Positions 1,161 through 25,664 of a stretch of DNA of 40,314 nucleotides are shown one piece after another (position 1 is the stretch's first letter; every line of letters starts with the position of its first letter). Location: positions 1 through 40,314 of the IMG/VR virus record IMGVR_UViG_3300035171_000015. The stretch is one strand, 5' to 3'. Under the pieces are notes generated by a model, which saw nothing but the letters and a program-made list of their open reading frames with translations, was not told the origin of the DNA and did not search any database. The position numbers were made by a program, and so were the translations under genes. The DNA comes from a virus.

Positions 1161-1188
1161 TTGACATTTAAAATTTATTCATTATTAT
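1161..1188 (+). promoter_or_regulatory. promoter for a leaderless gene at 1196
   Basis: TTGACA (1161-1166), 16-nt spacer, TATTAT (1183-1188). The ATG begins 7 nt after the box, at the expected +1. Confidence 0.75.
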
Positions 1189-1195
1189 TTGGTAT

Positions 1196-1792
1196 ATGAA
1201 AAGCTTAGTCTTAGACGTGAAACCAGTCTCTAAACAATTTCAACCATATACTCATATTCGGGGCGTTCATGTTTTGCCGACTATTTTAACTAAAGGACAA
1301 ATAGCTTCTGTTTATAAAAGGGTTACGATTAACACTCATCATGGCGACGAAGGGCATAACAGAATAACCCAAAAGGAAACGACAACAGTAAAAGCTTTTA
1401 AGGCTGATAAACCATATCATTTTCCTTGGATGGCTGGTTTGATTTTTGCTAGTATTCCAAAAATTCAATTGGATTTAGGTTTGATTGTGCTTCGTCCTGT
1501 TTGTGTAGATGCTAATATGCAAATTTACACTTTGCCAGAGGGCGGCGGTATTGTTCCCGCTCATGTTGACGAAGATTTTAAAACTAAACAAGGTTCTGCG
1601 CTTTATAGTATTTTAATTTATTTAAATGATGGCTATAAGGGTGGCGAAACTGTTTTTAATGGTTCTATGTATGCGCCAAAAGTTCCAAGCGGAGCCGGTT
1701 TACTTTTCAGACATAATCTTTTGCATGAAGGTTTGCGCGTTGAGTCAGGAGAGAAACACGTTTTGAAAACTGATTTGGTTTTTTCTTTTTAA
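1196..1792 (+). CDS. 2-oxoglutarate/Fe(II)-dependent oxygenase (prolyl 4-hydroxylase-like)
   Basis: A 198-residue double-stranded beta-helix dioxygenase. The iron triad is visible: H123 and D125 in the HxD motif PAHVDEDF and a distal His, H177, in LLHEGLRVESGEK. K187 in that block is where P4H-type enzymes bind the 2-oxoglutarate carboxylate. The preceding LIYLNDGYKGGETVF is typical of the P4Hc domain. The enzyme would couple 2OG decarboxylation to hydroxylation, but the target (protein, nucleic acid or small molecule) cannot be told from sequence. It is transcribed alone from a leaderless-type promoter. Confidence 0.9.
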   Translation: MKSLVLDVKPVSKQFQPYTHIRGVHVLPTILTKGQIASVYKRVTINTHHGDEGHNRITQKETTTVKAFKADKPYHFPWMAGLIFASIPKIQLDLGLIVLRPVCVDANMQIYTLPEGGGIVPAHVDEDFKTKQGSALYSILIYLNDGYKGGETVFNGSMYAPKVPSGAGLLFRHNLLHEGLRVESGEKHVLKTDLVFSF

Positions 1793-1796
1793 TTAC

Positions 1797-1824
1797 TTGA
1801 CATTTAATTTTTATTCATTATTAT
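1797..1824 (+). promoter_or_regulatory. promoter for a leaderless gene at 1831
   Basis: TTGACA (1797-1802), 16-nt spacer, TATTAT (1819-1824). The ATG begins 6 nt downstream. Confidence 0.75.
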
Positions 1825-1830
1825 AAATCC

Positions 1831-2301
1831 ATGAAAGATATTCAGCTTAAACATCGTAAAACCGGCAAGACTATCAAAGTTGGTTCTGTTATTCATTATG
1901 GCGGCGAACGATGCACGGTTTATAAAATCGTAAGTAAAGATAATATTGGATTGGAAAGCAAACAAACTGGTTCAAGTTGGGATATGATTCGTGCTTGCGA
2001 TATTGACTGTTTTGTGGTTGGCGAAAAAGTAACTCTGCCTGAAAATTGCAACATTACTCGCCTAGAAGCAAATTTATTTGCTTTAGAGTATTCTGAATTT
2101 GGTTTTGAGGCTACCGTTCCTAAATTAAATGAAATTAGAATTAAACTAGGTGATTTTCTTGCCAATAATTTTATAAAGAGTTGCGAGTCAGAGCCTATTG
2201 TTTATGTTAGGGAAGGGGATGTTGCCATAGGCTATATTTTTAAAGGAAAAAGAAATTTGCTGGAAAAACAGTTTAATATTAAAATTGCCGATAGACATTA
2301 A
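1831..2301 (+). CDS. hypothetical protein, possible small beta-barrel at the N terminus
   Basis: 156 residues, function unknown. The first 45 residues (KVGSVIHYGGERCTVYKI) alternate like an SH3-like barrel; the rest is mixed alpha/beta. There is no signal peptide. It is leaderless by promoter position. The following lipoprotein gene begins 14 nt after its stop and probably shares its transcript. Confidence 0.8.
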   Translation: MKDIQLKHRKTGKTIKVGSVIHYGGERCTVYKIVSKDNIGLESKQTGSSWDMIRACDIDCFVVGEKVTLPENCNITRLEANLFALEYSEFGFEATVPKLNEIRIKLGDFLANNFIKSCESEPIVYVREGDVAIGYIFKGKRNLLEKQFNIKIADRH

Positions 2302-2315
2302 AATTTTTAATCAAA

Positions 2316-2627
2316 ATGAAAAAACTCATTATTCCACTCCTTTTATTGGCCGGATTGATTGTTGGTTGCGATAGTCCAGAAAAAGCTAAAGCATTTAACC
2401 AGTCCAGCGTAAATAATCCTGAATTTGTCGCCAAGATGCCAGATGGCCGCAGTCTTTATTGTGTCCAGATTGATAGAGCGGAGTTGGCTCACTATCATTA
2501 TGTTTATTATTTTGGCAACGATGATGTTAAAACAATTAGCATTAATTCGGAAATTAAGTCTGGTAAAACTAGTTATAATGAAGTTATTGTAGTTAATGGC
2601 CGCGAGTATCATTTGGTTGAAAAATAA
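2316..2627 (+). CDS. small phage lipoprotein
   Basis: 103 residues. MKK plus a leucine-rich helix ends in LIVGC, a clear lipobox, so C18 should be lipidated after signal peptidase II cleavage and the protein anchored in a membrane. The mature part has no known domain. Phage lipoproteins often act in superinfection exclusion or lysis, but nothing here proves either. Likely co-transcribed with the gene ending at 2301. Confidence 0.85.
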   Translation: MKKLIIPLLLLAGLIVGCDSPEKAKAFNQSSVNNPEFVAKMPDGRSLYCVQIDRAELAHYHYVYYFGNDDVKTISINSEIKSGKTSYNEVIVVNGREYHLVEK

Positions 2628-2644
2628 TTTAATATTTAATTAAT

Positions 2645-2722
2645 ATGATTATATTTATTTTTAGTATTTGCGTAATTAGTCTTTCTGTTTGGTTATTTGT
2701 AGCCTCTGGCGAAGGTTTCTAA
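2645..2722 (+). CDS. 25-residue membrane micropeptide
   Basis: MIIFIFSICVISLSVWLF followed by a short polar tail: one predicted transmembrane helix. It starts 17 nt after the lipoprotein stop and ends just before the next promoter, so it fits as the last gene of that unit. Supported by position and hydrophobicity only. Confidence 0.5.
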   Translation: MIIFIFSICVISLSVWLFVASGEGF

Positions 2723-2729
2723 TATTTAG

Positions 2730-2758
2730 TTGACATTTGTTTTCGATAATATTATTAT
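2730..2758 (+). promoter_or_regulatory. promoter for a leaderless gene at 2765
   Basis: TTGACA (2730-2735), 17-nt spacer, TATTAT (2753-2758). The ATG begins 6 nt downstream. Confidence 0.75.
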
Positions 2759-2764
2759 ATTCGT

Positions 2765-3073
2765 ATGTCGAATAAAAAACAAATATTTAATGCAAGCGAG
2801 GCCAGTAAAACAAAATACTACGGCGTTTCACCATCTAAATTTAATTGTAAATATAATCGAGGATTTATAATGCGGTCAGCATATAATCATGGCAGTTTCC
2901 GATTAATTGCTGCCGACGATTTTACTCAATGTAATGGATGGTCAGAAATGGAAAACATAGATATTTCTAAATTAATTTCTAATCTTCTTTTAAATGGTTG
3001 GTCGGTTTATGAGTTTCCTACTTATCGCCATCTTTTGCGCTGGCTTTCAGATGACGCCAATCAATTTATTTAA
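2765..3073 (+). CDS. hypothetical protein
   Basis: 102 residues, no family recognised. The N-terminal half is basic and the C-terminal half (ISKLISNLLLNGWSVYEF) looks helical. Start set by the leaderless promoter. The next frame begins inside its last codons or just after its stop. Confidence 0.8.
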   Translation: MSNKKQIFNASEASKTKYYGVSPSKFNCKYNRGFIMRSAYNHGSFRLIAADDFTQCNGWSEMENIDISKLISNLLLNGWSVYEFPTYRHLLRWLSDDANQFI

Positions 3074-3545
3074 AATTGTGAATAAACGCAAATTACTTGA
3101 AAAAATCTACGACTCCCTATATGATGAAGCTAGCAAGGTTTTATCTGAATTCAACCCATGCGAACACAAGGTTTGTAATAGCTGCCATACCTGTTTAGGC
3201 AAAACAGATTTTACTGCGCGGAAAGGCTCGTATGGCGACAATACTAGCGAGCAGGCTTGTTGTATTGGCTGTAAATACTGGAATAAAGGATGCACGGCAA
3301 CTAAGCCGTTGTATTGTAAGGTTTGGCTTTGTGGAACGGCTGGTAAAAAACATCCATTGGTTTTGAAAAAACTAAGTATAATTGAAGGTAAGGCAAGAGG
3401 TTTTTTTATTCTACAGTCACGCGAAGATAAAAATACTTCAATTAGTTTTGCTTTAAAATGGATGAATCTAGAATGGAATAAAGGGTTTTATACATTTAAA
3501 AGCCTAAAATCAACTGCCGAAAAACGCGGAATTAATTTGACATAA
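3051..3545 (+). CDS. cysteine-rich, probably zinc-binding protein
   Basis: About 164 residues. Clustered cysteines (CNSCHTCLG, CCIGCKYWNKGC, YCKVWLCG) suggest two or more zinc sites; no nuclease motif is seen. The frame opens at 2994 in a stretch overlapping the previous gene. Reasonable starts are the ATG at 3051 (23-nt overlap) or the GTG at 3078, 5 nt after the previous stop. The spacing CxxCxYW...C recalls the Cys-rich frame at 7216-7584 without clear homology. Confidence 0.8.
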   Translation: MTPINLFKIVNKRKLLEKIYDSLYDEASKVLSEFNPCEHKVCNSCHTCLGKTDFTARKGSYGDNTSEQACCIGCKYWNKGCTATKPLYCKVWLCGTAGKKHPLVLKKLSIIEGKARGFFILQSREDKNTSISFALKWMNLEWNKGFYTFKSLKSTAEKRGINLT

Positions 3546-3565
3546 TAGAGGTTATCTATTATTTT
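3537..3565 (+). promoter_or_regulatory. promoter for the RNA leader at 3572
   Basis: TTGACA (3537-3542) overlaps the stop codon of the previous gene; 17-nt spacer, TATTTT (3560-3565). A TATTAT at 3557 is an alternative box with poor spacing. The expected start is near 3572. Confidence 0.5.
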
Positions 3566-3571
3566 ATATCT

Positions 3572-3720
3572 GTTGGCAGTTTAAAAAGAATCTCATAAAA
3601 CCGACGATTGTAAGGTTTCCAGTTAAATCTGGTTAAGAAAACAAAATAACACAGTCATTGGCCGGGTGCGGAGACACTTAAATTTGTTACCACCAATAGC
3701 AAACCGAGCCTAAAATTTAA
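3572..3720 (+). ncRNA. candidate structured RNA leader
   Basis: About 150 nt with no open frame and higher GC than its surroundings. Possible helices include CCAG/CTGG in CCAGTTAAATCTGG, ATTGG with CCAAT, GTG with CAC, and a longer-range GGTTT/AAACC. It ends in the TTTAAATAAA-type linker that precedes the ATG at 3741. I do not recognise a known RNA family. Confidence 0.4.
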
Positions 3721-3740
3721 ATAAAATAAATAATAAATAT

Positions 3741-3967: not shown

Positions 3968-3995
3968 TTGATAATATTAAATATTTCTTTATTAT
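3968..3995 (+). promoter_or_regulatory. promoter for a leaderless gene at 4003
   Basis: TTGATA (3968-3973), 16-nt spacer, TATTAT (3990-3995). The ATG begins 7 nt downstream. Confidence 0.6.
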
Positions 3996-4002
3996 ATATC
4001 AT

Positions 4003-4311
4003 ATGGAAAAACTAATCAAATCAGAAAATTTCTTTGTTGGCTTTGATAATCTTAAAAATTGCGATTATAAGCGGGGGCGTATTTATCTCAATGGCAACCA
4101 TTTTGCCAATTTCTATACCCTGGACAAGTCTTGGGGCGAGGCCGTAATTAGTCGTGGCGGCATTAATAAAACTGGCTGGATTGCTTTTAACCGCGATGCT
4201 TTGGCATTAGAAATGAATTGTCCGGTTATCGAACAATGCGAATCTTTTGAAAAGCTTTTGGAAATCTTGGAGAATTTTATAGTTAACTTTAAAAAAGAGC
4301 ATCTGAAATAA
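4003..4311 (+). CDS. hypothetical protein
   Basis: 102 residues starting MEKLIKSENFF. The frame is open further upstream (3931), but the promoter puts the transcription start at this ATG. The C-terminal 40 residues look helical and acidic, then Lys-rich. No family recognised. Confidence 0.75.
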   Translation: MEKLIKSENFFVGFDNLKNCDYKRGRIYLNGNHFANFYTLDKSWGEAVISRGGINKTGWIAFNRDALALEMNCPVIEQCESFEKLLEILENFIVNFKKEHLK

Positions 4312-4709: not shown

Positions 4710-4738
4710 TTGACAAAACAATAACATCCTATTAACAT
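4710..4738 (+). promoter_or_regulatory. promoter for a leaderless gene at 4745
   Basis: TTGACA (4710-4715), 17-nt spacer, TAACAT (4733-4738). The ATG begins 6 nt downstream. Confidence 0.7.
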
Positions 4739-4744
4739 AAACCT

Positions 4745-5026
4745 ATGAAAGAAACACTCATTAAAACTACTAAATCTTTTCAAACGTCCGATGGAATTTT
4801 GCATGGTGATAAGGTAGCCGCGCTTAAACATGAGCAAAAGCTGGAGTTTCGCGGCCTGCTTCAAACCAAAATGAAACAACTTGGTAACAATGGCAACCTT
4901 TATTCTGCTTTGGATATTGCTCGCGTTTTGGCCGAGGAAACGGAGGCAGTTATTTCTATTTCAACTAAATACCGTATTGCTATTAATCGCTCACAGGCTA
5001 ATAAAAACCGAGTCAAGGCCGGATAA
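4745..5026 (+). CDS. hypothetical protein
   Basis: 93 residues, basic, mostly helical (LYSALDIARVLAEETEAV). No known domain. Stands alone between two promoters. Confidence 0.75.
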   Translation: MKETLIKTTKSFQTSDGILHGDKVAALKHEQKLEFRGLLQTKMKQLGNNGNLYSALDIARVLAEETEAVISISTKYRIAINRSQANKNRVKAG

Positions 5027-5040: not shown

Positions 5041-5069
5041 TTGACAAATTAATTATTCACTATTAATAT
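5041..5069 (+). promoter_or_regulatory. promoter for the gene at 5108
   Basis: TTGACA (5041-5046), 17-nt spacer, TAATAT (5064-5069). Unlike most units here it has a leader of about 32 nt, almost only A, C and T, with no SD. Confidence 0.7.
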
Positions 5070-5107
5070 AAATCTGTCCTAAAAAAAACAAATAAACAAA
5101 AAAACCT

Positions 5108-5479
5108 ATGGATTCAAATACCGAAACTCTTATTCGTGAGTTGGCCGCAAAACTTGGAACAACTGTTGAGCATCTTTATACCGTGCTAGTTAAACAGGCT
5201 TTCATTACTGGCGTATCAGATATTGTTATTTGTTCATTTATATTAGTAGCTCTTATTTTTTCGGCCTTTTATCTATTTAAAGGTATTGCCAAGGCCAAGA
5301 AAAATCAAGACGAACGCGAGCCATATGCTATTCCCGAATTTATTATTCCGGTTATTTTAGCTGTTATTTTTGGTATAATGTTTATAATTGCTTTTCTTGC
5401 TAATATTGAAGATATTATCACCTGTTTTTCTAATCCTGAATATTTTGCCGTCCATGAAATTCTTAAATATGTTCGTTGA
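5108..5479 (+). CDS. two-helix membrane protein with LGTTVEHL motif
   Basis: 123 residues. The cytoplasmic-looking N terminus (RELAAKLGTTVEHLYTVLV) resembles one I recall from many phage membrane proteins of unknown function. Two transmembrane segments follow (about 38-60 and 80-100) around a basic loop (KAKKNQDEREP). A holin or lysis role is possible but not shown. Confidence 0.8.
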   Translation: MDSNTETLIRELAAKLGTTVEHLYTVLVKQAFITGVSDIVICSFILVALIFSAFYLFKGIAKAKKNQDEREPYAIPEFIIPVILAVIFGIMFIIAFLANIEDIITCFSNPEYFAVHEILKYVR

Positions 5480-5504
5480 CAAAATAGAAAATAAATATTA
5501 ATAT
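5476..5504 (+). promoter_or_regulatory. promoter for the gene at 5538
   Basis: TTGACA (5476-5481) overlaps the previous stop; 17-nt spacer, TAATAT (5499-5504). The leader of about 27 nt is A-rich (ACAATAAACAATAAACAAA) and has no SD. Confidence 0.7.
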
Positions 5505-5537
5505 CAATTCGTAACTTAACAATAAACAATAAACAAA

Positions 5538-5705
5538 ATGAATAAAAATAGGAAAAGAATCAAGCGTTTGGAGGCCAAGGAAAACAAAGGTAAATGGCCT
5601 AAGCCGGTCTTTAAAAAGAAGGTTAAGCCGTTTCCGAAGGTTGAGGAAGGCCCAACTCTGCGCGAACAACGTGAACAGTTCTACGGGCCGCAGTTTATTG
5701 CATAG
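5538..5705 (+). CDS. 55-residue very basic protein
   Basis: Starts MNKNRKRIKRLEAKEN; rich in Lys, Arg and Pro and likely nucleic-acid binding or disordered. The frame is too short for most gene callers, but it has its own promoter and ends just before a hairpin. A minus-strand frame over the same bases is a shadow. Confidence 0.65.
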   Translation: MNKNRKRIKRLEAKENKGKWPKPVFKKKVKPFPKVEEGPTLREQREQFYGPQFIA

Positions 5706-6582: not shown

Positions 6583-6611
6583 TTGACATTTTACTCACGG
6601 CCTATTATATT
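6583..6611 (+). promoter_or_regulatory. promoter before the RNA element at 6620-6760
   Basis: TTGACA (6583-6588), 17-nt spacer, TATATT (6606-6611). The expected start, near 6618, is a few bases before a 19-codon frame. Confidence 0.6.
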
Positions 6612-6622
6612 TATTTTACCAG

Positions 6623-6682
6623 ATGGTTAAAAACTGGTGGAGGCGAAAGCTGAAAAACAAACCAAACAAAAAAACGTATTAA
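6623..6682 (+). CDS. possible 19-residue basic leader peptide
   Basis: MVKNWWRRKLKNKPNKKTY with its ATG close to the expected transcription start. This could be a real micropeptide or chance within an RNA leader; the Trp-Trp and Lys/Arg content recalls leader peptides, but nothing else supports it. Confidence 0.3.
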   Translation: MVKNWWRRKLKNKPNKKTY

Positions 6683-6704
6683 AACACAATACAACTAAAA
6701 AACA

Positions 6705-6757
6705 CTCCTAGCGATGTAGCCGTGCCTAGTCACACTTCAAAGCTTATTCCCTAGGAG
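6705..6757 (+). promoter_or_regulatory. hairpin element before the gene at 6775
   Basis: CTCCTAG (6705-6711) pairs perfectly with CTAGGAG (6751-6757). The 3' arm holds the only GGAG nearby, but it is 17 nt from the ATG, too far for a usual SD. The linker AATTTAAAAGAAA follows. Confidence 0.4.
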
Positions 6758-6774
6758 AATCAATTTAAAAGAAA

Positions 6775-7591: not shown

Positions 7592-7619
7592 TTGACAATT
7601 CAATTTTAACCATTAATAT
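7592..7619 (+). promoter_or_regulatory. promoter for a leaderless gene at 7626
   Basis: TTGACA (7592-7597), 16-nt spacer, TAATAT (7614-7619). The ATG begins 6 nt downstream. Confidence 0.75.
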
Positions 7620-7625
7620 AAATAC

Positions 7626-8144
7626 ATGAAAAAACTAATCATTGCATCACTAATCTGTTTCTCAACTCTGGCGGCAACTGCGGCCTATCATCCTACCGAT
7701 GAAACTAATGTTGTTAATTCAGTTAATTCTATTGCGGCCAATACCAATATTACGCAGGCCGTTATTAGTATTCTGTCTGGCGTCAAGAATGTTGGCGGCG
7801 AAATTTACGATACAAGCAAGGTGGCAATCGGTCAATCGGTTGATTTTGTCAAGCAACAGGCCCCCGATGTTGTCGAGCAGTTTCTTAAATGGAAATTCTT
7901 TGAGTCCGCGATTTATACGGTTAGCGGACTGGTTGGATTTATTTTAATTGGTTTGATTGTTTATTTTTCTCTTCGAGCCATGATTAAGTATGAATCTTGG
8001 GAAATGTCTCCTATTCTTATGGTTTTTATTCTTCCGTGTATTCCTTGTTGGTGCGGTCTATCTCATATAATGACCTGTGCTTATATCTATTGCGCTCCAA
8101 AGGTTTACTTGATTGATTATATTATCACTAATTTGAAGCATTAA
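7626..8144 (+). CDS. exported or membrane protein with signal peptide
   Basis: 172 residues. MKKLIIASLICFSTLAATAAY is a signal peptide with a plausible AxA cleavage site. An extracytoplasmic region (to about 90) is followed by a transmembrane helix (VSGLVGFILIGLIVYFSLRA) and a second hydrophobic Cys-rich stretch (ILPCIPCWCGLSHIM). Function unknown; the layout could fit envelope modification or lysis. Confidence 0.8.
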   Translation: MKKLIIASLICFSTLAATAAYHPTDETNVVNSVNSIAANTNITQAVISILSGVKNVGGEIYDTSKVAIGQSVDFVKQQAPDVVEQFLKWKFFESAIYTVSGLVGFILIGLIVYFSLRAMIKYESWEMSPILMVFILPCIPCWCGLSHIMTCAYIYCAPKVYLIDYIITNLKH

Positions 8145-9841: not shown

Positions 9842-10123
9842 ATGAAAAAACCTATTAATAAAGAATCTAAATTAGAAATTGGCATAATCTATTTTATTTA
9901 TATTTGTGTTGTTATTTTTAATTTTCTTTTTTGGACATTAGTTTTTGGACTCTGTTTACCAATTCGTTTGATGTCTTATCTTTACCATTTAGTTTTTACA
10001 AAACCGCTTTGCGTTACTACCTATTATCCTCAAGGTGGACATAAATATTTTGCTAATAAATATCATTCAATGATTTGGCGTAATTTTTTAGAAAGTTATT
10101 GCGATTGTTTAAAAATTTCTTGA
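9842..10123 (+). CDS. membrane protein with cytoplasmic domain
   Basis: 93 residues: one or two transmembrane segments between about 13 and 52, then a soluble tail with HKYFANKYHSMIWRNFLESYCDC. Function unknown. Its stop overlaps the next -35 element. Confidence 0.7.
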   Translation: MKKPINKESKLEIGIIYFIYICVVIFNFLFWTLVFGLCLPIRLMSYLYHLVFTKPLCVTTYYPQGGHKYFANKYHSMIWRNFLESYCDCLKIS

Positions 10124-10147
10124 CAATCAAAACTATTTTGTTATTCT
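10120..10147 (+). promoter_or_regulatory. promoter for a leaderless gene at 10154
   Basis: TTGACA (10120-10125), 16-nt spacer, TATTCT (10142-10147). The ATG begins 6 nt downstream. Confidence 0.75.
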
Positions 10148-10153
10148 ATCAAT

Positions 10154-10396
10154 ATGAAAGAAATTCCTGATGCTGAATTATCCAAAAAACAAAGCTTGGA
10201 TAACCTTGAAAAACTTAATCTTTTAAATCAAGAAAAAGAGGAAGAACGTATTTGTGGTTTAATTCAATCAGCAATTTCACAGGGCCAAAGGTCATTTGGA
10301 ATAGAAGGTGAGATTTCACCTAAAACCAAAAAGATTCTTGATAGCAAGGGTTATAAATACTCATTCTCTTGCGGCGAAACTAATATTGGTTGGTAA
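10154..10396 (+). CDS. small protein paralogous to the one at 6127
   Basis: 80 residues. An acidic helical N terminus leads to the shared pattern LIQSAISQGQRSFGIEG, ISPKTKKILDSKGYKYS and the terminal NIGW. Same predicted fold and order as the 92-residue protein at 6127; function unknown. Confidence 0.75.
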   Translation: MKEIPDAELSKKQSLDNLEKLNLLNQEKEEERICGLIQSAISQGQRSFGIEGEISPKTKKILDSKGYKYSFSCGETNIGW

Positions 10397-10432: not shown

Positions 10433-10438
10433 AAACTT

Positions 10439-15817: not shown

Positions 15818-15824
15818 AAATTAT

Positions 15825-16789: not shown

Positions 16790-16817
16790 TTGACAAGTAA
16801 GATAAATCCGTTATTCT
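16790..16817 (+). promoter_or_regulatory. promoter of the RNA at 16822-17046
   Basis: TTGACA (16790-16795), 16-nt spacer, TATTCT (16812-16817). Confidence 0.65.
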
Positions 16818-16821
16818 ATAG

Positions 16822-17046
16822 ATGTTAAGAGCAACTGGCCGCAGCCAGTAACAAATCGGTAAACATGAACAACTAAACTATTATGAACCCTATTCGAGCA
16901 GGCCCGCAATAAATCTAAATTATTAAATAATGAACATTACTAGCTAATAAAATTATATCTATAAAATAGATATAAAATAAAAAATAAAGATAGATAGATA
17001 GGCCGTCAGATATATCCGAATGGAGTCTGGCGGCTTATCGCTTTTT
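16822..17046 (+). ncRNA. candidate noncoding RNA with own promoter and end hairpin
   Basis: A 372-nt gene-free gap. After the promoter come hairpin ACTGGC-CGCA-GCCAGT (16834-16849), a perfect 9-bp TATATCTAT/ATAGATATA with an AAA loop (16954-16974) and a 9-bp GC-rich hairpin (17002-17034) followed by TTTTT. A nine-codon frame (MLRATGRSQ) begins near the expected start. No known RNA family recognised. Confidence 0.5.
17002..17046 (+). terminator. possible terminator
   Basis: GCCGTCAGA pairs with TCTGGCGGC (one U-G), loop 15 nt; a T5 run follows 7 nt after the stem, a little far for a strong terminator. Confidence 0.45.
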
Positions 17047-17084
17047 ATAGATAGAAATAAAATAAAGAAATAGTAAATAAATAA

Positions 17085-17112
17085 TTGACAAATAATTCTT
17101 TCATATTATTAT
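17085..17112 (+). promoter_or_regulatory. promoter for a leaderless gene at 17120
   Basis: TTGACA (17085-17090), 16-nt spacer, TATTAT (17107-17112). The ATG begins 7 nt downstream. Confidence 0.7.
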
Positions 17113-17119
17113 AAATCAA

Positions 17120-17323
17120 ATGAGAACTAAATATTTTCTGTTACATGATAATCAATGCGTTTGGCGTTGGAAGAATGCCTATATGACTTTTGTGGATTTG
17201 CGTAGTTTTGGCTCGGTTCGTCGTGATAGCATGGATGATGTTGAAAGTCTTAAAAAGACTTTTAAAGTTAAACAGATTAGTTACAAGGCCGCAAGAAAAA
17301 TAAATAAATTATTTGTTAATTAA
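17120..17323 (+). CDS. YF...W...KAARKI family protein
   Basis: 67 residues: RTKYFLLHDNQCVWRW, a Trp/Phe middle and QISYKAARKINKLF. A member of the family first seen at 5801. Own promoter. Confidence 0.75.
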   Translation: MRTKYFLLHDNQCVWRWKNAYMTFVDLRSFGSVRRDSMDDVESLKKTFKVKQISYKAARKINKLFVN

Positions 17324-17340: not shown

Positions 17341-17368
17341 TTGACAAAATAAATATTTTCGTTATTCT
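17341..17368 (+). promoter_or_regulatory. promoter for a leaderless gene at 17375
   Basis: TTGACA (17341-17346), 16-nt spacer, TATTCT (17363-17368). The ATG begins 6 nt downstream. Confidence 0.75.
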
Positions 17369-17374
17369 ATTGAT

Positions 17375-17611
17375 ATGAGATATACATATTTTAAGCGGAC
17401 GGGAACATTTGCCACAAATAATATCTATCGCCTAAAGTTTGGCAGGCTGGAAGTTTTTATGAGGGGCGAAAATAAGTGGGATGAATCTGCTTTTAGTTTA
17501 AAGGATTTAGAGAGGCTTTCCTCGCCTAATAATTCGTGCCTTAATACTCGTTTCCACAAAATTACCCGCGACCAAGCGCGTAAGGAATGCAAGGAAGGTT
17601 TTATTAAATAA
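17375..17611 (+). CDS. YF...W...RDQARKE family protein
   Basis: 78 residues: YTYFKRTGTFATNNIYRLK, RLEVFMRG, KWDESAF and KITRDQARKECKEGFIK. One of the clearest members of the family. Confidence 0.75.
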   Translation: MRYTYFKRTGTFATNNIYRLKFGRLEVFMRGENKWDESAFSLKDLERLSSPNNSCLNTRFHKITRDQARKECKEGFIK

Positions 17612-18278: not shown

Positions 18279-18307
18279 TTGACATTTAGTTTTGGATGTA
18301 TTAGTAT
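18279..18307 (+). promoter_or_regulatory. promoter of the RNA region at 18314
   Basis: TTGACA (18279-18284), 17-nt spacer, TAGTAT (18302-18307). Confidence 0.6.
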
Positions 18308-18313
18308 ATTGAT

Positions 18314-18590
18314 GTTGGTGATAATTACGAATTGAGATGGAATGACTCGTAAGATTTATTCCGTAGTTCTAATAGATAGGATAATTAGCACTAACTAAAT
18401 TTTACATATCTGATGATGGCCGGAAGGCCGAAATAGATTTAAATAATCTATAATATGTTTAGCTAGGGTTTATAGATAAGGAAAGGCTGGTCTAATCAAC
18501 CAAGCTGGCGACAAATCGAAGGAGCAAATCGCCCGCCTGCTCGCAAAGCAGGAAACCGTTTGAAATAGAACGGCCCGAACTAAACAATTT
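18314..18590 (+). ncRNA. candidate noncoding RNA, first part of a 569-nt gene-free region
   Basis: No frame of useful length. Hairpins: GGCC-GGAA-GGCC (18418-18429), TAGATT/AATCTA (18434-18450), CCTGC/GCAGG (18536-18552) and CCGTT/AACGG (18556-18573). GC content rises locally against an AT-rich background, as expected for structured RNA. Family unknown. Confidence 0.5.
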
Positions 18591-18607
18591 AATTTTAAAT
18601 AGTTCTT

Positions 18608-18757
18608 TTAATTCTGTTGCTGGTTATTTGTTTAGCGAGATAGATGGTTGCGTTAGTGTATGCCTCTTATCGCTGTCTATCGAGTAGTGTAAAATAAAAA
18701 ATTACATACTCGCAAACGAAAAATGCGCCAGCATTTTATAACCGACAACAGAATTAA
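18608..18757. ncRNA. candidate multibranched RNA closed by a 12-bp helix
   Basis: TTAATTCTGTTG (18608-18619) is a perfect inverted match to 18746-18757. Inside it GTTT-a-GCGAG (18630-18639) pairs with CTCGCAAAC (18709-18717), GATAGA (18639-18644) with TCTATC (18676-18681), TGTAA with TTACA, and ATGC with GCAT (18723-18734). The helices nest into one plausible fold. The strand is unproven; plus is suggested by the upstream promoter. A DNA cruciform or origin is the alternative. Confidence 0.5.
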
Positions 18758-18786: not shown

Positions 18787-18815
18787 TTGACATTTCTTTT
18801 AGCATTAATTACTAT
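18787..18815 (+). promoter_or_regulatory. promoter for a leaderless gene at 18822
   Basis: TTGACA (18787-18792), 17-nt spacer, TACTAT (18810-18815). The ATG begins 6 nt downstream. This promoter lies inside the longer open frame and so fixes the start. Confidence 0.75.
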
Positions 18816-18821
18816 CTGACT

Positions 18822-19154
18822 ATGTTAAATAAATTTTATACGATACTTTCTCAAAAACTTGAAGACGAAATTCTTTATATTCAGGAAACTTTTTTAGAGT
18901 CGGCAGAAAATGGAGAAACACTTTCTCGTGGAGAAGCTATTAGGAGAATTGCAGAAGACTCCGATGAACCAAATCATTACGCATCTAATTTCCGAACAGA
19001 ATTAAATAAATTACTTATTTCTTTAGGTTGTTACAAATTAATGAGCCAAAAAGATTTGGATAATACCTATGTTTCTCGCGGCTATAAATATGATTTGAAA
19101 TATAAAGGAAATAAATATAAATTTGAAAGCTGGGAACCTTTAATGAAATTGTAA
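18822..19154 (+). CDS. hypothetical protein
   Basis: 110 residues from MLNKFYTILSQK. The frame is open from 18723, but the first 33 codons overlap the RNA candidate and the promoter, so the later ATG is chosen. Acidic helical first half (EAIRRIAEDSDEP) and basic Tyr/Lys-rich end. No family recognised. Confidence 0.75.
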   Translation: MLNKFYTILSQKLEDEILYIQETFLESAENGETLSRGEAIRRIAEDSDEPNHYASNFRTELNKLLISLGCYKLMSQKDLDNTYVSRGYKYDLKYKGNKYKFESWEPLMKL

Positions 19155-19551: not shown

Positions 19552-19579
19552 TTGACAAATAAATATTAACCATTATCTT
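19552..19579 (+). promoter_or_regulatory. promoter of the RNA leader at 19586
   Basis: TTGACA (19552-19557), 16-nt spacer, TATCTT (19574-19579). Confidence 0.65.
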
Positions 19580-19585
19580 ATCTTT

Positions 19586-19640
19586 GGTGACGGTTAGGGC
19601 CGCAAGTGTGCGACTCGTTTGCAAAAGCAAGACCGCCACC
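19586..19640 (+). ncRNA. 5' hairpin at the predicted transcription start
   Basis: GGTGACGGT (19586-19594) pairs with ACCGCCACC (19632-19640) over eight of nine positions, and the expected first nucleotide is the base of the stem. Such a 5' cap helix can block decay or mark a regulatory leader. The promoter at 25693 starts with the same GTGACGGTTA. Confidence 0.5.
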
Positions 19641-19660
19641 GCCAATTTAAAAAACTAATT

Positions 19661-19732
19661 ATGAAAATAACTATTCGTTTCGATTCCAACGGTTTGGCTC
19701 GCGTTCGCTGGACGGCGCGAAAGAAAAACTAA
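19661..19732 (+). CDS. 23-residue basic peptide
   Basis: MKITIRFDSNGLARVRWTAR plus KKN. It has codon use typical of the GC-richer genes (CGC, GGT), sits after the 5' hairpin and before the tRNA-like RNA. A real micropeptide is plausible but unproven. Confidence 0.45.
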   Translation: MKITIRFDSNGLARVRWTARKKN

Positions 19733-19742
19733 ATAAATTTAC

Positions 19743-19890
19743 GAGCGCGTGGCGGAATGTAAAGACGCTACATGGTGAAATGGAACAAAGTATGATAGTG
19801 ATGAGAGGGACTAACTCTAAAATGTCCATACTCCACACCAGCTAGTCTAACTATCGGAATAGTATGCAGGTTCAAATCCTGTCGCGCTCA
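19743..19890 (+). tRNA. tRNA-like RNA with an oversized anticodon region
   Basis: Acceptor GAGCGCG (19743-19749) pairs perfectly with CGCGCTC (19883-19889). A Leu/Ser-type D arm (GCG...CGC, 19752-19768), a variable arm ACTAT/ATAGT (19850-19863) and a normal T arm (GCAGG, TTCAAAT, CCTGT) are present. But 148 nt is about 60 more than a class II tRNA. The extra bases fall where the anticodon arm should be and can pair with each other (TGGTG/CACCA, GTATG/CATAC). No anticodon can be read; CCA is not encoded. It could be an intron-bearing tRNA, a decoy or a processing signal. Confidence 0.6.
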
Positions 19891-19922
19891 ACCTTTAAAT
19901 AAAATAATAAATAATAAACAAA

Positions 19923-20490: not shown

Positions 20491-20519
20491 TTGACAGAAT
20501 AAAATTAAACCATTAATAT
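20491..20519 (+). promoter_or_regulatory. promoter for a leaderless gene at 20527
   Basis: TTGACA (20491-20496), 17-nt spacer, TAATAT (20514-20519). The ATG begins 7 nt downstream. Confidence 0.7.
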
Positions 20520-20526
20520 TTTTTTA

Positions 20527-20694
20527 ATGAAAACATATTTCTTATTTCTTTGGAAAGACATTCAAATCACTTATTGGAAATGGTGCAACTTGCGGCTTGA
20601 ATCAAAGATTGCAATGATTAAAATTAAAGCAATCGAAAAACATAATCAATTAGAAAACTTCAGAAAAGAAATGGTCAGTAAATTTATTGATTAA
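20527..20694 (+). CDS. 55-residue basic protein
   Basis: MKTYFLFLWKDIQITYWKW, then a long basic helix (SKIAMIKIKAIEKHNQLENF). Possibly peripheral membrane or coiled. Own promoter; the next gene starts 3 nt after its stop. Confidence 0.65.
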   Translation: MKTYFLFLWKDIQITYWKWCNLRLESKIAMIKIKAIEKHNQLENFRKEMVSKFID

Positions 20695-21703: not shown

Positions 21704-21731
21704 TTGACTATTTGATTTTATCCGTTATTCT
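21704..21731 (+). promoter_or_regulatory. promoter for a leaderless gene at 21738
   Basis: TTGACT (21704-21709), 16-nt spacer, TATTCT (21726-21731). The ATG begins 6 nt downstream. Confidence 0.75.
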
Positions 21732-21737
21732 TTTGTT

Positions 21738-21971
21738 ATGATTGACTACGTTCAACAGAGAAAAGATTTTGACGCGCAAGTTTCCGATGATTCTAAAGCG
21801 ATTGGTTACGCTATCAATCCCGGGCCTGTAGAAACTAAAACAAAAATTTTTAAATGGAAATACGATGAATTCGTCCGGTGTCGTTTGGTATTGTGTCGCG
21901 TGCTAGACTCTGCAATGTGGCTGCGTTATCCAAAGGAATTAATTGTTTTAACTAACGGAGAAATACTTTAA
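21738..21971 (+). CDS. hypothetical protein
   Basis: 77 residues: an acidic N terminus, a basic middle (KIFKWKYDEFVRCRLVLCRV) and the end YPKELIVLTNGEIL. No family recognised. Confidence 0.75.
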   Translation: MIDYVQQRKDFDAQVSDDSKAIGYAINPGPVETKTKIFKWKYDEFVRCRLVLCRVLDSAMWLRYPKELIVLTNGEIL

Positions 21972-21991: not shown

Positions 21992-22019
21992 TTGACATTT
22001 CTTTTCCATCTATTATTCT
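21992..22019 (+). promoter_or_regulatory. promoter for a leaderless gene at 22026
   Basis: TTGACA (21992-21997), 16-nt spacer, TATTCT (22014-22019). The ATG begins 6 nt downstream. First of the nearly identical AATTAGTTGACATTTCTTTT promoters. Confidence 0.8.
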
Positions 22020-22025
22020 ACCTAC

Positions 22026-22256
22026 ATGAAAACGACAATTCAACCGACTAAATCCATGTGGGGCACCTGCCACTTTCCATCACAGAATGCGGCGTTGCGG
22101 TATTACCAAAGCAATATTTCGCCTGAATACACAGGCGCGGACATTCTAGCCAAGATTGCGAACAAGGAAATTGTCATTGGCCGCCCGGCCGTTAAGTTAA
22201 ATCAAACAGTTTTCTTGCATGAATCAGAGGAGCGGTATTATATTATTCAAAAATAA
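22026..22256 (+). CDS. small phage protein with FPSQNAALRYYQ motif
   Basis: 76 residues: CHFPSQNAALRYYQSNISPE, a helix DILAKIANKEIVIGRP, and a final HESEERYYI. I recall this order (xxAxxYY...V..K...G.I.IG.P...RYxI) from other small phage proteins of unknown role. Confidence 0.75.
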   Translation: MKTTIQPTKSMWGTCHFPSQNAALRYYQSNISPEYTGADILAKIANKEIVIGRPAVKLNQTVFLHESEERYYIIQK

Positions 22257-22706: not shown

Positions 22707-22734
22707 TTGACATTTCTTTTTAAACCTTTATACT
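22707..22734 (+). promoter_or_regulatory. promoter for a leaderless gene at 22741
   Basis: TTGACA (22707-22712), 16-nt spacer, TATACT (22729-22734). The ATG begins 6 nt downstream. Confidence 0.8.
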
Positions 22735-22740
22735 TTATTT

Positions 22741-22926
22741 ATGCATGAAATACATTTTGAAATTCGTGAAATCAAATCTAATTGCCAGCCAATCGTTTCT
22801 CGCGGCACACTTGAAGAGCCCTTCCATATTGGCATGATAAATGCCTTTAAAACTTTATATCCAGAACCGAAATTTTCTCATTCCTATTGGCGCGAAGAAA
22901 TAACTCCTAAATTTATTAAGTTTTAA
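22741..22926 (+). CDS. hypothetical protein
   Basis: 61 residues: EIHFEIREIKSNCQPIV, then SYWREEITPKFIKF. Its stop overlaps the start of the hydrolase gene (TAATG), so the two are translationally coupled. Confidence 0.7.
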   Translation: MHEIHFEIREIKSNCQPIVSRGTLEEPFHIGMINAFKTLYPEPKFSHSYWREEITPKFIKF

Positions 22927-23481: not shown

Positions 23482-23510
23482 TTGACATTTCTTTTTAAAA
23501 TCATTACTAT
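23482..23510 (+). promoter_or_regulatory. promoter for a leaderless gene at 23517
   Basis: TTGACA (23482-23487), 17-nt spacer, TACTAT (23505-23510). The ATG begins 6 nt downstream. Confidence 0.8.
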
Positions 23511-23516
23511 TTAAAA

Positions 23517-23684
23517 ATGAAAAATTCTTTCAGCCGTGAACAGCTAACGCCAAAAGAGCGAACCGCGATACTTGCAAAGGATAAAAACCATTTGTGGGGC
23601 AAGAATGGCTTTTGTGTCAACTGTCACAATGTCCATCAAACCGACTTTCGCAAGAATGATTTGTGCCCTATTTTGATGAAATAA
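23517..23684 (+). CDS. 55-residue protein with a CxxC zinc site
   Basis: MKNSFSREQLTPKERTAILA, then GFCVNCHNVHQTDF and a last Cys at 50. A partial zinc knuckle (CVNCH). Function unknown. Confidence 0.7.
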   Translation: MKNSFSREQLTPKERTAILAKDKNHLWGKNGFCVNCHNVHQTDFRKNDLCPILMK

Positions 23685-23688
23685 TTAG

Positions 23689-23717
23689 TTGACATTTCTT
23701 TTTATTAACATTAATCT
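23689..23717 (+). promoter_or_regulatory. promoter for the gene at 23753
   Basis: TTGACA (23689-23694), 17-nt spacer, TAATCT (23712-23717). The leader of about 30 nt is A-rich with no SD. Confidence 0.75.
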
Positions 23718-23752
23718 ATTTGTGTTGATAGAAACAAATTAACTAAAAAATT

Positions 23753-24022
23753 ATGCAAGCAATCATCACAAAATACTTACCCGTTACCGCAACCAAGCCC
23801 GCGCGGATTAAGGCTAGTTGCTCCCGTGGCTCGCTAACCATTTCCGTTTATTCCGGCAAGATGATTCAAGAGGTTTCTGGACACGATGAGCTAAACCATA
23901 TTTGCGCGGCTGGCGAATTGATTAAAAAATTCGTCAAAGAGGATGGCAATGATTCATGGGCGCGGCCTTTCAAAACCGGACAACTGCCGAACATGGATTA
24001 TGTTCATGTTTTTATTAAGTAA
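23753..24022 (+). CDS. common phage protein of the IITKYLPxTxxKPARIKA type
   Basis: 89 residues. The N terminus ITKYLPVTATKPARIKAS followed by CSRGSLTISV is a pattern I recall from very many phage and prophage hypothetical proteins; the middle helix ICAAGELIKKFVKED is also typical. No function is assigned. Confidence 0.85.
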   Translation: MQAIITKYLPVTATKPARIKASCSRGSLTISVYSGKMIQEVSGHDELNHICAAGELIKKFVKEDGNDSWARPFKTGQLPNMDYVHVFIK

Positions 24023-24045: not shown

Positions 24046-24073
24046 TTGACATTTAATTTTCAACCATTAACTT
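24046..24073 (+). promoter_or_regulatory. promoter for a leaderless gene at 24080
   Basis: TTGACA (24046-24051), 16-nt spacer, TAACTT (24068-24073). The ATG begins 6 nt downstream. Confidence 0.8.
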
Positions 24074-24079
24074 TTAAAT

Positions 24080-24238
24080 ATGAAAGTTATTTTAATTCCT
24101 AAAGGTTATCGCAAGCTTAAACGTGGTACGGTTAAACAGGCTGGCGATTTAGTTTGGATTTCGAGCCGTAACGAGTTTATTCCAACTGGCTTTATCGGCC
24201 AAAAGGTTTTTGGTGCAACTGTAATTCGTTTAAAATAG
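24080..24238 (+). CDS. small PKGYRKLKRG-type phage protein
   Basis: 52 residues: ILIPKGYRKLKRGTVKQAGD, LVWISS and the end FGATVIRLK. Paralogue of the proteins at 6775 and 11878. Confidence 0.75.
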   Translation: MKVILIPKGYRKLKRGTVKQAGDLVWISSRNEFIPTGFIGQKVFGATVIRLK

Positions 24239-24250: not shown

Positions 24251-24278
24251 TTGACATTTAATTTTCAATCATTATCCT
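24251..24278 (+). promoter_or_regulatory. promoter for a leaderless gene at 24285
   Basis: TTGACA (24251-24256), 16-nt spacer, TATCCT (24273-24278). The ATG begins 6 nt downstream. Confidence 0.75.
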
Positions 24279-24284
24279 AAAAAT

Positions 24285-24491
24285 ATGTTAAATATTCCTA
24301 ACGATACAAATAAAGTCATTAGCTATGTTTACGCTAGTGAATCAAGGGCCGGAAAAGGCAATAAACAGTTAATTGTTGTTACTGATATTGTTTTGCGTCA
24401 CACGTTTTTCTCAGTCACTCATAATAACAAGGCTAATAATTACGGAAACATTGAGTTTGCCGTGCAAGCTTTTAATTCAATTAAACTTTAA
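24285..24491 (+). CDS. hypothetical protein
   Basis: 68 residues, beta-patterned (KQLIVVTDIVLRHTFFSVTH) with a C-terminal helix (IEFAVQAFNSIKL). No family recognised. Confidence 0.7.
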   Translation: MLNIPNDTNKVISYVYASESRAGKGNKQLIVVTDIVLRHTFFSVTHNNKANNYGNIEFAVQAFNSIKL

Positions 24492-24506
24492 ATTTTAAAT
24501 AATTAG

Positions 24507-24534
24507 TTGACATTTCTTTTTTATCCATTATCTT
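24507..24534 (+). promoter_or_regulatory. promoter for a leaderless gene at 24541
   Basis: TTGACA (24507-24512), 16-nt spacer, TATCTT (24529-24534). The ATG begins 6 nt downstream. Confidence 0.75.
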
Positions 24535-24540
24535 AAACGT

Positions 24541-24618
24541 ATGAATGAATTCAACAGTATTTCGGCGGAAAGCGATTTGAAAGATTTGATTGTGATTTTA
24601 CCGGAGGAAATGGAGTAA
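24541..24618 (+). CDS. 25-residue acidic peptide
   Basis: MNEFNSISAESDLKDLIVIL plus PEEME. The start codon is exactly where the promoter predicts. It could be a real micropeptide or a leader to the RNA region behind it. Confidence 0.5.
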   Translation: MNEFNSISAESDLKDLIVILPEEME

Positions 24619-24639
24619 ATGTTTTTTGGTTTCTGGTAT

Positions 24640-24910
24640 GATTAGTTAGCGCGAAGCGGCGGGGTTTAAAAACCCTCTATGCGCTTAATTCAGAGTTGTT
24701 GTGAGCCTAAAGCCTCTGGAATTAATCACGCCAGAACCCAGAGAATAATAAATAAAAATAATTTGCTTGTCAGTTGCGATGCGGGCTTTGAAGTAAGCCC
24801 TTAAATCAACCGAAATAACGGTTGGCGTAATCTGATAAAGACGGCAAGCAATTCAACTTCGGATTGAATAAGTGAGAGCCAAAGTACGCGCAGGGCGCGG
24901 AAAAGCCGGG
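24640..24910 (+). ncRNA. candidate structured RNA(s)
   Basis: A 327-nt gap between genes with locally high GC. Part one: GCGC/GCGC (24649, 24681) around GGGTT/AACCC, and CAGAG/CTCTG (24691, 24714). Part two: TTGCTTG (24763-24769) pairs with CAAGCAA (24845-24851) and encloses TCAG/CTGA, GGGCTT/AAGCCC and CAACCG/CGGTTG. Then come a UUCG-capped hairpin (24851-24869) and CGCGC/GCGCG (24887-24899). It ends in the TTTAAATAAA linker before 24946. No known family recognised. Confidence 0.55.
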
Positions 24911-24945
24911 TCCTTATTCTTTCTTAATTTAAATAAAAAAATCTT

Positions 24946-25161
24946 ATGCAAGTTGTCAAAACATATTTCAGATTAGTTTTAAAAGACGGTCAAAATAGAT
25001 TAGATTCTGTCTGTTTTGAACAGCATCACTGTGCGGAGGCTAGGGGCCTTGGTCTAAATTGCGATTTTAACGAGCATTACGGCATTACTAGGAGCGCGGC
25101 CCTTGAATTGATAAACCGTTGGAACACCGGAGAGACTAATTTTAAGTATTGGATAATTTAA
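24946..25161 (+). CDS. hypothetical protein with ITRSAALELINRWN motif
   Basis: 71 residues: TYFRLVLKDGQNRLDSVCFE, an EARGLGLNCDF segment, then YGITRSAALELINRWN. The final helix resembles those in other small phage proteins. Expressed behind the structured RNA region. Confidence 0.75.
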   Translation: MQVVKTYFRLVLKDGQNRLDSVCFEQHHCAEARGLGLNCDFNEHYGITRSAALELINRWNTGETNFKYWII

Positions 25162-25316
25162 TCAAAACTAATCAAAATCCTCTTAAATCCTTCTAAATAA
25201 TTTAAAACCGTCCAAAATAATCCTAAATAATTAAAAAAACTTATTAATTATCCTTGCCAAATAATCATTAAATCATTAAATTCTACAATGAAATTCAACC
25301 ATTAAAATAAAAACTT

Positions 25317-25373
25317 ATGATTTTTATAGTTGTCATAATTGCCTCGCTCCTTGTGATGTCTCTTTTACAATAA
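25317..25373 (+). CDS. 18-residue membrane micropeptide
   Basis: MIFIVVIIASLLVMSLLQ, a single helix. A weak promoter (TTGCCA 25254-25259, 17-nt spacer, TAAATT 25277-25282) lies upstream. Confidence 0.45.
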   Translation: MIFIVVIIASLLVMSLLQ

Positions 25374-25416
25374 ACAAATTTAAATAAACTTAAATAAAAA
25401 TATTTTAAATAATTAA

Positions 25417-25445
25417 TTGACATTTCTTTTTCGTGCCATTATGAT
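25417..25445 (+). promoter_or_regulatory. promoter for a leaderless gene at 25452
   Basis: TTGACA (25417-25422), 17-nt spacer, TATGAT (25440-25445). The ATG begins 6 nt downstream. Confidence 0.8.
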
Positions 25446-25451
25446 TTGGGC

Positions 25452-25664
25452 ATGGATAAAACATTAATTGTCTGGCTTGGTGGAGTACGGTTTGAAACCA
25501 AAAAGGATTTGAATCAAATAACTTTCAATTGCGCCTTTCATGGCCTGACAAAGATAGGCCCCGCGCAAAAGGTTACGCTGGATAAGATGAAAAACATTCG
25601 TTGCGCCTCATGCGGCCAACATCCCCACGAAACCAATCGCGCCGAAATTCGAGACCAGCTTTAA
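25452..25664 (+). CDS. small zinc-ribbon-like protein
   Basis: 70 residues from MDKTLIVWLGGVRFETKKDL. FNCAFHG and RCASCGQHPHE supply Cys/His pairs for one zinc. A TTG two codons upstream would sit on the promoter box, so the ATG at 25452 is chosen. Confidence 0.75.
   Translation: MDKTLIVWLGGVRFETKKDLNQITFNCAFHGLTKIGPAQKVTLDKMKNIRCASCGQHPHETNRAEIRDQL

What the first reader, a model, noticed from the sequence alone, without database searches (positions are those of the whole stretch)
1161..25452. About two dozen small genes look leaderless, each with its own promoter
In 24 genes (starts 1196, 1831, 2765, 4003, 4745, 7626, 8695, 10154, 10439, 11546, 15292, 15825, 17120, 17375, 18822, 20527, 21738, 22026, 22741, 23517, 24080, 24285, 24541 and 25452) the ATG begins 6 or 7 nt after a TANNNT box that sits 16-17 nt behind TTGACA or a near match. 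The usual transcription start is therefore the A of the ATG. Leaderless genes are known (lambda cI from PRM), but dozens in tandem in one phage would be a distinct gene-expression strategy.
Basis: partly seen in the sequence, partly recalled or inferred. Interest (0 to 1): 0.88.

Follow-up and report, generated by a model that had tools for sequence, protein, structure and literature searches.

The report
Phage with dozens of leaderless genes
A large, uncultured, AT-rich phage places a standard bacterial promoter so close to about fifty of its small genes that their messages should start exactly at the start codon, with no ribosome-binding leader, which is rare at this scale in phages and can be tested directly by RNA sequencing.

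Summary
All 24 sites are as described. In the window, ATG follows a TTGACA-like/TANNNT pair at 6 or 7 nt 26 times, against about 1.5 expected, with no excess for GTG or TTG. Of 42 intergenic promoters, 24 sit at 6-7 nt; none sits at 0-5 or 8-20 nt.

An independent replicate turned up. A 147.8-kb IMG/VR contig (G011) overlaps the window's left end by 138 nt with one mismatch, so the phage is probably at least 188 kb. Its matching strand gives 30 sites at 6-7 nt, against 3.5 in shuffles. Strict promoters are almost all on one strand: 33 versus 0 in the window, 52 versus 3 in G011. Forty-eight of these 85 are leaderless-type.

No Shine-Dalgarno signal exists in either contig.

Best reading: a sigma-70-type RNA polymerase starts transcription on the A of the ATG, giving leaderless mRNAs. 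Other same-type promoters drive genes with A-rich leaders, a tRNA and possible non-coding RNAs. RNA data are absent; the host is unknown.

The parts
1161..1198 (+). leaderless-type promoter and ATG of gene 1196-1792
   Evidence: TTGACA-N16-TATTAT-7-ATG
1797..1833 (+). leaderless-type promoter and ATG of gene 1831-2301
   Evidence: TTGACA-N16-TATTAT-6-ATG
2730..2767 (+). leaderless-type promoter and ATG of gene 2765-3073
   Evidence: TTGACA-N17-TATTAT-6-ATG
3968..4005 (+). leaderless-type promoter and ATG of gene 4003-4311
   Evidence: TTGATA-N16-TATTAT-7-ATG
4710..4747 (+). leaderless-type promoter and ATG of gene 4745-5026
   Evidence: TTGACA-N17-TAACAT-6-ATG
7592..7628 (+). leaderless-type promoter and ATG of gene 7626-8144; the protein begins with a signal-peptide-like stretch at this ATG
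   Evidence: TTGACA-N16-TAATAT-6-ATG; N-terminus MKKLIIASLICFSTLAATAA
8661..8697 (+). leaderless-type promoter and ATG of gene 8695-9048
   Evidence: TTGACT-N16-TATATT-6-ATG
10120..10156 (+). leaderless-type promoter and ATG of gene 10154-10396
   Evidence: TTGACA-N16-TATTCT-6-ATG
10404..10441 (+). leaderless-type promoter and ATG of gene 10439-10654
   Evidence: TTGACA-N17-TAATTT-6-ATG
11511..11548 (+). leaderless-type promoter and ATG of gene 11546-11761
   Evidence: TTGACA-N17-TATATT-6-ATG
15258..15294 (+). leaderless-type promoter and ATG of gene 15292-15420
   Evidence: TTGACT-N16-TATATT-6-ATG
15790..15827 (+). leaderless-type promoter and ATG of gene 15825-16004
   Evidence: TTGACT-N16-TAATAT-7-ATG
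17085..17122 (+). leaderless-type promoter and ATG of gene 17120-17323
   Evidence: TTGACA-N16-TATTAT-7-ATG
17341..17377 (+). leaderless-type promoter and ATG of gene 17375-17611
   Evidence: TTGACA-N16-TATTCT-6-ATG
18787..18824 (+). leaderless-type promoter and ATG of gene 18822-19154 (inside a longer ORF that opens at 18723)
   Evidence: TTGACA-N17-TACTAT-6-ATG
20491..20529 (+). leaderless-type promoter and ATG of gene 20527-20694
   Evidence: TTGACA-N17-TAATAT-7-ATG
21704..21740 (+). leaderless-type promoter and ATG of gene 21738-21971
   Evidence: TTGACT-N16-TATTCT-6-ATG
21992..22028 (+). leaderless-type promoter and ATG of gene 22026-22256
   Evidence: TTGACA-N16-TATTCT-6-ATG
22707..22743 (+). 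leaderless-type promoter and ATG of gene 22741-22926
   Evidence: TTGACA-N16-TATACT-6-ATG
23482..23519 (+). leaderless-type promoter and ATG of gene 23517-23684
   Evidence: TTGACA-N17-TACTAT-6-ATG
24046..24082 (+). leaderless-type promoter and ATG of gene 24080-24238
   Evidence: TTGACA-N16-TAACTT-6-ATG
24251..24287 (+). leaderless-type promoter and ATG of gene 24285-24491
   Evidence: TTGACA-N16-TATCCT-6-ATG
24507..24543 (+). leaderless-type promoter and ATG of short ORF 24541-24618 (25 codons)
   Evidence: TTGACA-N16-TATCTT-6-ATG
25417..25454 (+). leaderless-type promoter and ATG of gene 25452-25664
   Evidence: TTGACA-N17-TATGAT-6-ATG
747..860 (+). same promoter type (747-774) in front of tRNA-Arg(TCT) 783-860; the -10 box ends 8 nt before the tRNA, a check on the likely start point
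5041..5110 (+). same promoter type with an A-rich leader without SD, gene 5108
   Evidence: d=38 nt
5476..5540 (+). same promoter type with an A-rich leader without SD, gene 5538
   Evidence: d=33 nt
12576..12649 (+). same promoter type with leader, gene 12647
   Evidence: d=43 nt
23689..23755 (+). same promoter type with leader, gene 23753
   Evidence: d=35 nt
25693..25766 (+). same promoter type with leader, gene 25764
   Evidence: d=42 nt
28144..28218 (+). same promoter type with leader, gene 28216
   Evidence: d=43 nt
3537..3740 (+). same promoter type followed by about 170 nt without a called gene: candidate non-coding RNA or long leader
6583..6774 (+). same promoter type followed by about 160 nt without a called gene
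16790..17080 (+). same promoter type followed by about 270 nt without a called gene
18279..18722 (+). same promoter type followed by about 400 nt without a called gene
19552..19922 (+). same promoter type followed by a stretch with no gene called, including a tRNA-like sequence
   Evidence: sequence read

Best explanation
This is part of a large (probably at least 188 kb), AT-rich tailed phage in which a bacterial sigma-70-type RNA polymerase recognises TTGACA/TANNNT promoters spread along about 106 kb of mostly small, co-directional genes. At about half of these promoters the ATG lies 6-7 nt after the -10 box, so the RNA should start on, or one base before, the A of the ATG. Such an mRNA has no leader and must be translated from its 5'-terminal AUG. 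The remaining same-type promoters make mRNAs with roughly 30-nt A-rich leaders that lack a Shine-Dalgarno sequence, a tRNA, and possibly non-coding RNAs. Genes between promoters are probably read as downstream cistrons. Shown here: promoter positions, spacing, strand bias, replication in a second contig, and absence of SD. Inferred: the transcription start, leaderless translation, use of the host's main sigma factor, and that the two contigs are one phage.
For: Peak at 6-7 nt: 26 in the window versus about 1.5 expected. Independent replicate in G011: 30 versus a mean of 3.5 and a maximum of 8 in 60 shuffles, with 21 of the 30 at independently called gene starts. Strict promoters by strand: 33 to 0 in the window, 52 to 3 in G011; 48 of 85 leaderless-type. 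Distances over 42 intergenic promoters: 24 at 6-7 nt, none at 0-5 or 8-20, one at 21 that overlaps another promoter, six at 33-43, the rest 94 or more. The ATG follows the -10 box, not the -35: with spacer 16 there are 21 at 6 nt and 6 at 7, with spacer 17 there are 15 and 6. The base before ATG is a pyrimidine in 43 of 48 versus 132 of 188 other starts, p=0.005, as at typical start sites. The gap before most of the 24 genes is 30-57 nt, just room for the promoter. The starts look real: A-rich codons 2-3 (0.60 versus 0.34 after internal ATGs) and a signal-peptide-like start at 7626. No SD: 2 of 88 in the window; 15 of 250 in G011 versus 11 shuffled. The statistic also rises in phiYS40 (9 and 7 versus about 3), a phage reported to make leaderless mRNAs (PMC3594737).
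Against: There is no RNA evidence. The host, and so its exact start-site rules and tolerance of leaderless mRNA, is unknown. Start sites can vary by a base or two, so some leaders may be 1-2 nt. Nine of the 30 G011 ATGs were not called gene starts, and some open frames under 25 codons. Joining G011 to the window rests on 138 nt with one mismatch, and the other ends do not overlap. The phage encodes sigma-like proteins, so a phage sigma cannot be ruled out.
Confidence: 0.83

Rival explanations
1. The promoters are real, but transcription usually starts a few bases upstream or scatters, so the mRNAs have very short leaders and are translated by the same leader-tolerant initiation that serves the rest of this SD-free phage. 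The 6-7 nt spacing then reflects tight packing more than a need for a 5'-terminal AUG.
For: Gaps before these genes are often just promoter-sized. The whole phage lacks SD, so a leader seems of little use to it. Start-site choice in bacteria varies by a base or two (general knowledge).
Against: Packing would allow any distance of 0 or more, but intergenic promoters are empty at 0-5 and 8-20 nt. The ATG is tied to the -10 box across two spacer lengths. The preceding base fits a start-site consensus.
Confidence: 0.12
2. The repeated element is a shared block copied between genes, such as a recombination boundary or mobile promoter cassette, and the constant spacing reflects descent rather than function.
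For: In the 18-25 kb cluster the 26 nt around TTGACA are 81-100% identical between unrelated genes, dropping to background on both sides (repeats).
Against: Identity drops before the -10 box and the ATG, which are kept only as a pattern. The left-hand promoters and those in G011 share little beyond the two hexamers yet keep the spacing. The proteins are mostly unrelated.
Confidence: 0.03
3. Chance in AT-rich DNA.
For: The sequence is 68% AT and promoter-like matches at loose thresholds are close to chance (122 found, 104 expected).
Against: Shuffles, the opposite strand, a pool of other viral contigs and an independent contig all speak against it.
Confidence: 0.01
4. The true start codons lie further downstream and the ATGs at 6-7 nt are not used.
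For: Starts 4003 and 18822 lie inside longer open frames, showing that start assignment is not certain from the ORF alone.
Against: The next in-frame ATG is usually 20 or more codons away or absent, and one gene has a signal-peptide-like sequence beginning at the proposed ATG. Codons 2-3 are A-rich as at other starts.
Confidence: 0.01

Closest known systems
Thermus thermophilus phage phiYS40 (leaderless middle/late mRNAs)
   Same: Many phage genes transcribed without a leader; the same distance statistic is raised at 6-7 nt (PMC3594737).
   Different: There the leaderless class is reported as middle/late, in a thermophile whose phylum uses leaderless mRNA widely (PMC12340547). Here the sites have a full TTGACA -35 box, lie in a region of small genes, and the peak is much stronger (26 among 64 sites versus 16 among 205). 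The host is unknown and no IF3 gene was found.
Cluster O mycobacteriophages (Corndog): PL1, PR2 and PL2
   Different: Three promoters per genome against about fifty here; the Corndog ones were also predictions.
Lambda cI mRNA from PRM
   Same: The classic leaderless phage mRNA from a sigma-70 promoter (textbook knowledge; used as a model lmRNA in PMC9031893).
   Different: A single gene in a phage whose other genes use SD.
Bacterial 'TA-led' leaderless genes (Actinobacteria, Deinococcus-Thermus)
   Same: TANNNT at about 12 bp upstream of the start codon as the mark of leaderless genes (PMC3160421); validated by experiment in Deinococcus (PMC12340547).
   Different: Cellular genomes, many of high GC; [quoted passage not shown]
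Start-associated sequences of cluster K mycobacteriophages
   Same: A short repeated element just upstream of many small phage genes (PMC3203893).
   Different: SAS is a 13-bp GGGATAGGAGCCC element proposed to act in translation initiation; the element here is a promoter and lacks that sequence.

Membership tests
Bacterial leaderless (TA-led) genes | TANNNT box about 10-12 bp upstream of the start codon | tested here: met
   24 genes in the window, about 25 in G011
Bacterial leaderless (TA-led) genes | No Shine-Dalgarno sequence before the start | tested here: met
   2 of 88, 15 of 250 versus 11 shuffled
Bacterial leaderless (TA-led) genes | ATG start codon; GTG/TTG not favoured | tested here: met
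   No excess of GTG or TTG at 6-7 nt
Bacterial leaderless (TA-led) genes | mRNA 5' end at the start codon | not testable with these tools
   Needs RNA 5'-end mapping
Sigma-70-type promoters | TTGACA, 16-18 nt, TANNNT | tested here: met
   Most -35 boxes exact TTGACA; spacers 16-17
Sigma-70-type promoters | Used by the host housekeeping RNA polymerase | not testable with these tools
   Host unknown; no multisubunit RNAP domain PF00562 found in either contig; two sigma region-2-like proteins present
phiYS40-type leaderless phage programme | Leaderless class tied to infection stage and to a shift of IF2/IF3 | not testable with these tools
   No expression data; no phage IF3
Cluster K start-associated sequences | 13-bp GGGATAGGAGCCC upstream of the start | tested here: not met
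   Logo of the 45 nt upstream shows no such element

The most novel reading that the evidence does not exclude
A phage of at least 188 kb, free of Shine-Dalgarno signals, runs a region of about 106 kb of small genes through roughly fifty separately promoted leaderless mRNAs as a deliberate expression regime, distinct from its structural genes, which lack these promoters and may use a phage sigma factor. Leaderless translation would then be the main way these promoter-proximal genes are started.
Probability: 0.35. Interest if true: 0.8.

Novelty: new variant of a known kind. Interest (0 to 1): 0.62.

Why it matters
Leaderless mRNAs are usually treated as rare exceptions in phages of mesophilic bacteria. 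A genome with about fifty of them, each carrying a near-consensus promoter, would be a natural system for studying leaderless initiation and the promoter -10/start-codon coupling. It would also help start-codon annotation of small phage genes, and it hints at a host that tolerates leaderless, SD-free translation.

Tried and rejected
Chance in AT-rich DNA: rejected by shuffles, opposite strand, other viral contigs and the second contig. Gene-plus-promoter duplication: the 24 genes are mostly unrelated. Similar arrays in other viruses: two pattern scans of viral contigs gave only single hits per contig; relatives found by the tail gene hold little or none of the small-gene region, and none has a TTGACA-type leaderless site. 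A search with the DUF932 protein found no relatives, and the polymerase of G011 found only itself. Host assignment failed: tail-gene relatives are scattered over Betaproteobacteria, Flavobacteria and others at 27-43%; DNA polymerase and terminase hits are remote. A weak tmRNA match at window 1-51 is instead the 3' part of a tRNA-Met(CAT), seen whole in G011. That tRNA as an initiator tRNA: rejected, because its acceptor begins with a G-C pair by reading the sequence. Phage IF3 as a switch: none found. A late motif GTGTAA-N20/21-TATAAG upstream of three tail-related genes: total matches are no more than chance (4 versus 3.8), so kept only as a lead. tRNA 5' ends as a general start-site ruler: only two tRNAs have a good promoter of their own.
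Full report
The window is a 40,314-base IMG/VR virus record, GC 0.32. It holds lambda-like tail genes at 34.3-40.3 kb and about 26 kb of small genes on the + strand.

Observation. Counting every TTGACA (one mismatch allowed) with a TANNNT box 15-19 nt on, ATG occurs 20 times at 6 nt and 6 times at 7 nt after the box, against 0.81 and 0.67 in 200 dinucleotide shuffles. GTG and TTG show no excess and the - strand none. A pool of 1121 such sites from other viral contigs is flat. Among 42 intergenic promoters, 24 lie at 6-7 nt, none at 0-5 or 8-20, one at 21 (it overlaps another promoter), six at 33-43 and the rest at 94 or more.

Independent replicate. A search with the sequence at the window's left edge found one other viral contig, G011 (IMGVR_UViG_3300035171_000016, 147,760 bases). 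Its first 138 bases match the window's first 138 on the opposite strand with one mismatch. I take it to be the neighbouring part of the same or a near-identical phage. The other ends do not overlap. G011 carries terminase, DnaB, polymerase III alpha, ribonucleotide reductase and RecA-type genes and 13 tRNAs. On the strand that continues the window's direction it has 21 sites at 6 nt and 9 at 7 nt; shuffles give 3.5 in all, at most 8. Twenty-one of the 30 coincide with independently called gene starts. Nearly all lie in its first 80 kb, next to the window's array. With strict motifs the two regions hold 85 promoters against 3 on the opposite strands; 48 are leaderless-type.

Why leaderless. In sigma-70 promoters the start point lies about 7 bases after the -10 box (general knowledge), which is here the A of the ATG. 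The ATG keeps its distance to the -10 box whether the spacer is 16 or 17. A pyrimidine precedes it in 43 of 48 cases, against 132 of 188 other starts. The starts look genuine by codon 2-3 composition and, at 7626, by a signal-peptide-like N-terminus. No Shine-Dalgarno signal exists in either contig, so leadered genes must also start without one; their leaders are A-rich, as in SD-free Bacteroidetes (PMC6847099). The tRNA-Arg at 783 has its -10 box 8 nt before its 5' end, in line with the assumed start point.

What is not shown. No RNA ends are available. The host is unknown. Two proteins with a sigma region-2 domain are encoded in G011; they could serve other genes or, less likely given the classical -35 box, these promoters. 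No multisubunit RNA polymerase domain (PF00562) or IF3 gene was found.

Known context. Leaderless genes are marked in bacteria by TANNNT about 12 bp upstream (PMC3160421). Most middle/late mRNAs of phage phiYS40 are reported leaderless (PMC3594737); my statistic shows a raised but weaker peak there. Corndog has three predicted leaderless promoters (PMC4351075). The present case differs in number, in the near-consensus -35 boxes, in the SD-free genome and in the region of small genes. I file it as a new variant of a known kind.

About three quarters of the genes have no such promoter. The promoters also serve leadered genes, a tRNA and stretches that may be non-coding RNAs. In the 18-25 kb cluster a 26-nt block around TTGACA is shared between unrelated genes, so some promoters probably spread by copying.

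Noticed in passing
window 1-138; G011 1-138 (L183): The window's left end overlaps another IMG/VR contig of 147,760 bases by 138 nt with one mismatch; together they suggest one phage of at least 188 kb split into two records.
   Followed up: yes
window 3537-3740, 6583-6774, 16790-17080, 18279-18722, 19552-19922: Good promoters followed by 160-400 nt without a gene: candidate non-coding RNAs. No Rfam match at the gathering threshold.
   Followed up: partly
window 19738-19892 and 20134-20208: tRNA-like sequences (one with a long insert, one resembling tRNA-Lys(TTT)) that ARAGORN and Rfam do not call.
   Followed up: partly
L185 (G011 40-60 kb): Twelve tRNA genes spread among small genes, besides tRNA-Met at the window edge and tRNA-Arg at 783.
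   Followed up: no
L187:8128-8754:+ and L188:10189-10893:-: Two phage proteins with a sigma-70 region-2 domain.
   Followed up: partly
window 34265-34297 (+), 34247-34215 (-); L189 8011 (-): GTGTAA-N20/21-TATAAGG upstream of three tail-related genes, including the 2289-aa presumed tape measure: a possible late promoter, but total counts do not exceed chance.
   Followed up: partly
window 26457-27809: DUF932-like gene in a stretch of much higher GC (0.45) than the rest (0.32), probably a recent arrival.
   Followed up: no
window 29680-34206 (-): Three consecutive reversed genes whose proteins are distantly similar to each other (25-27% identity), lying before the tail module.
   Followed up: no
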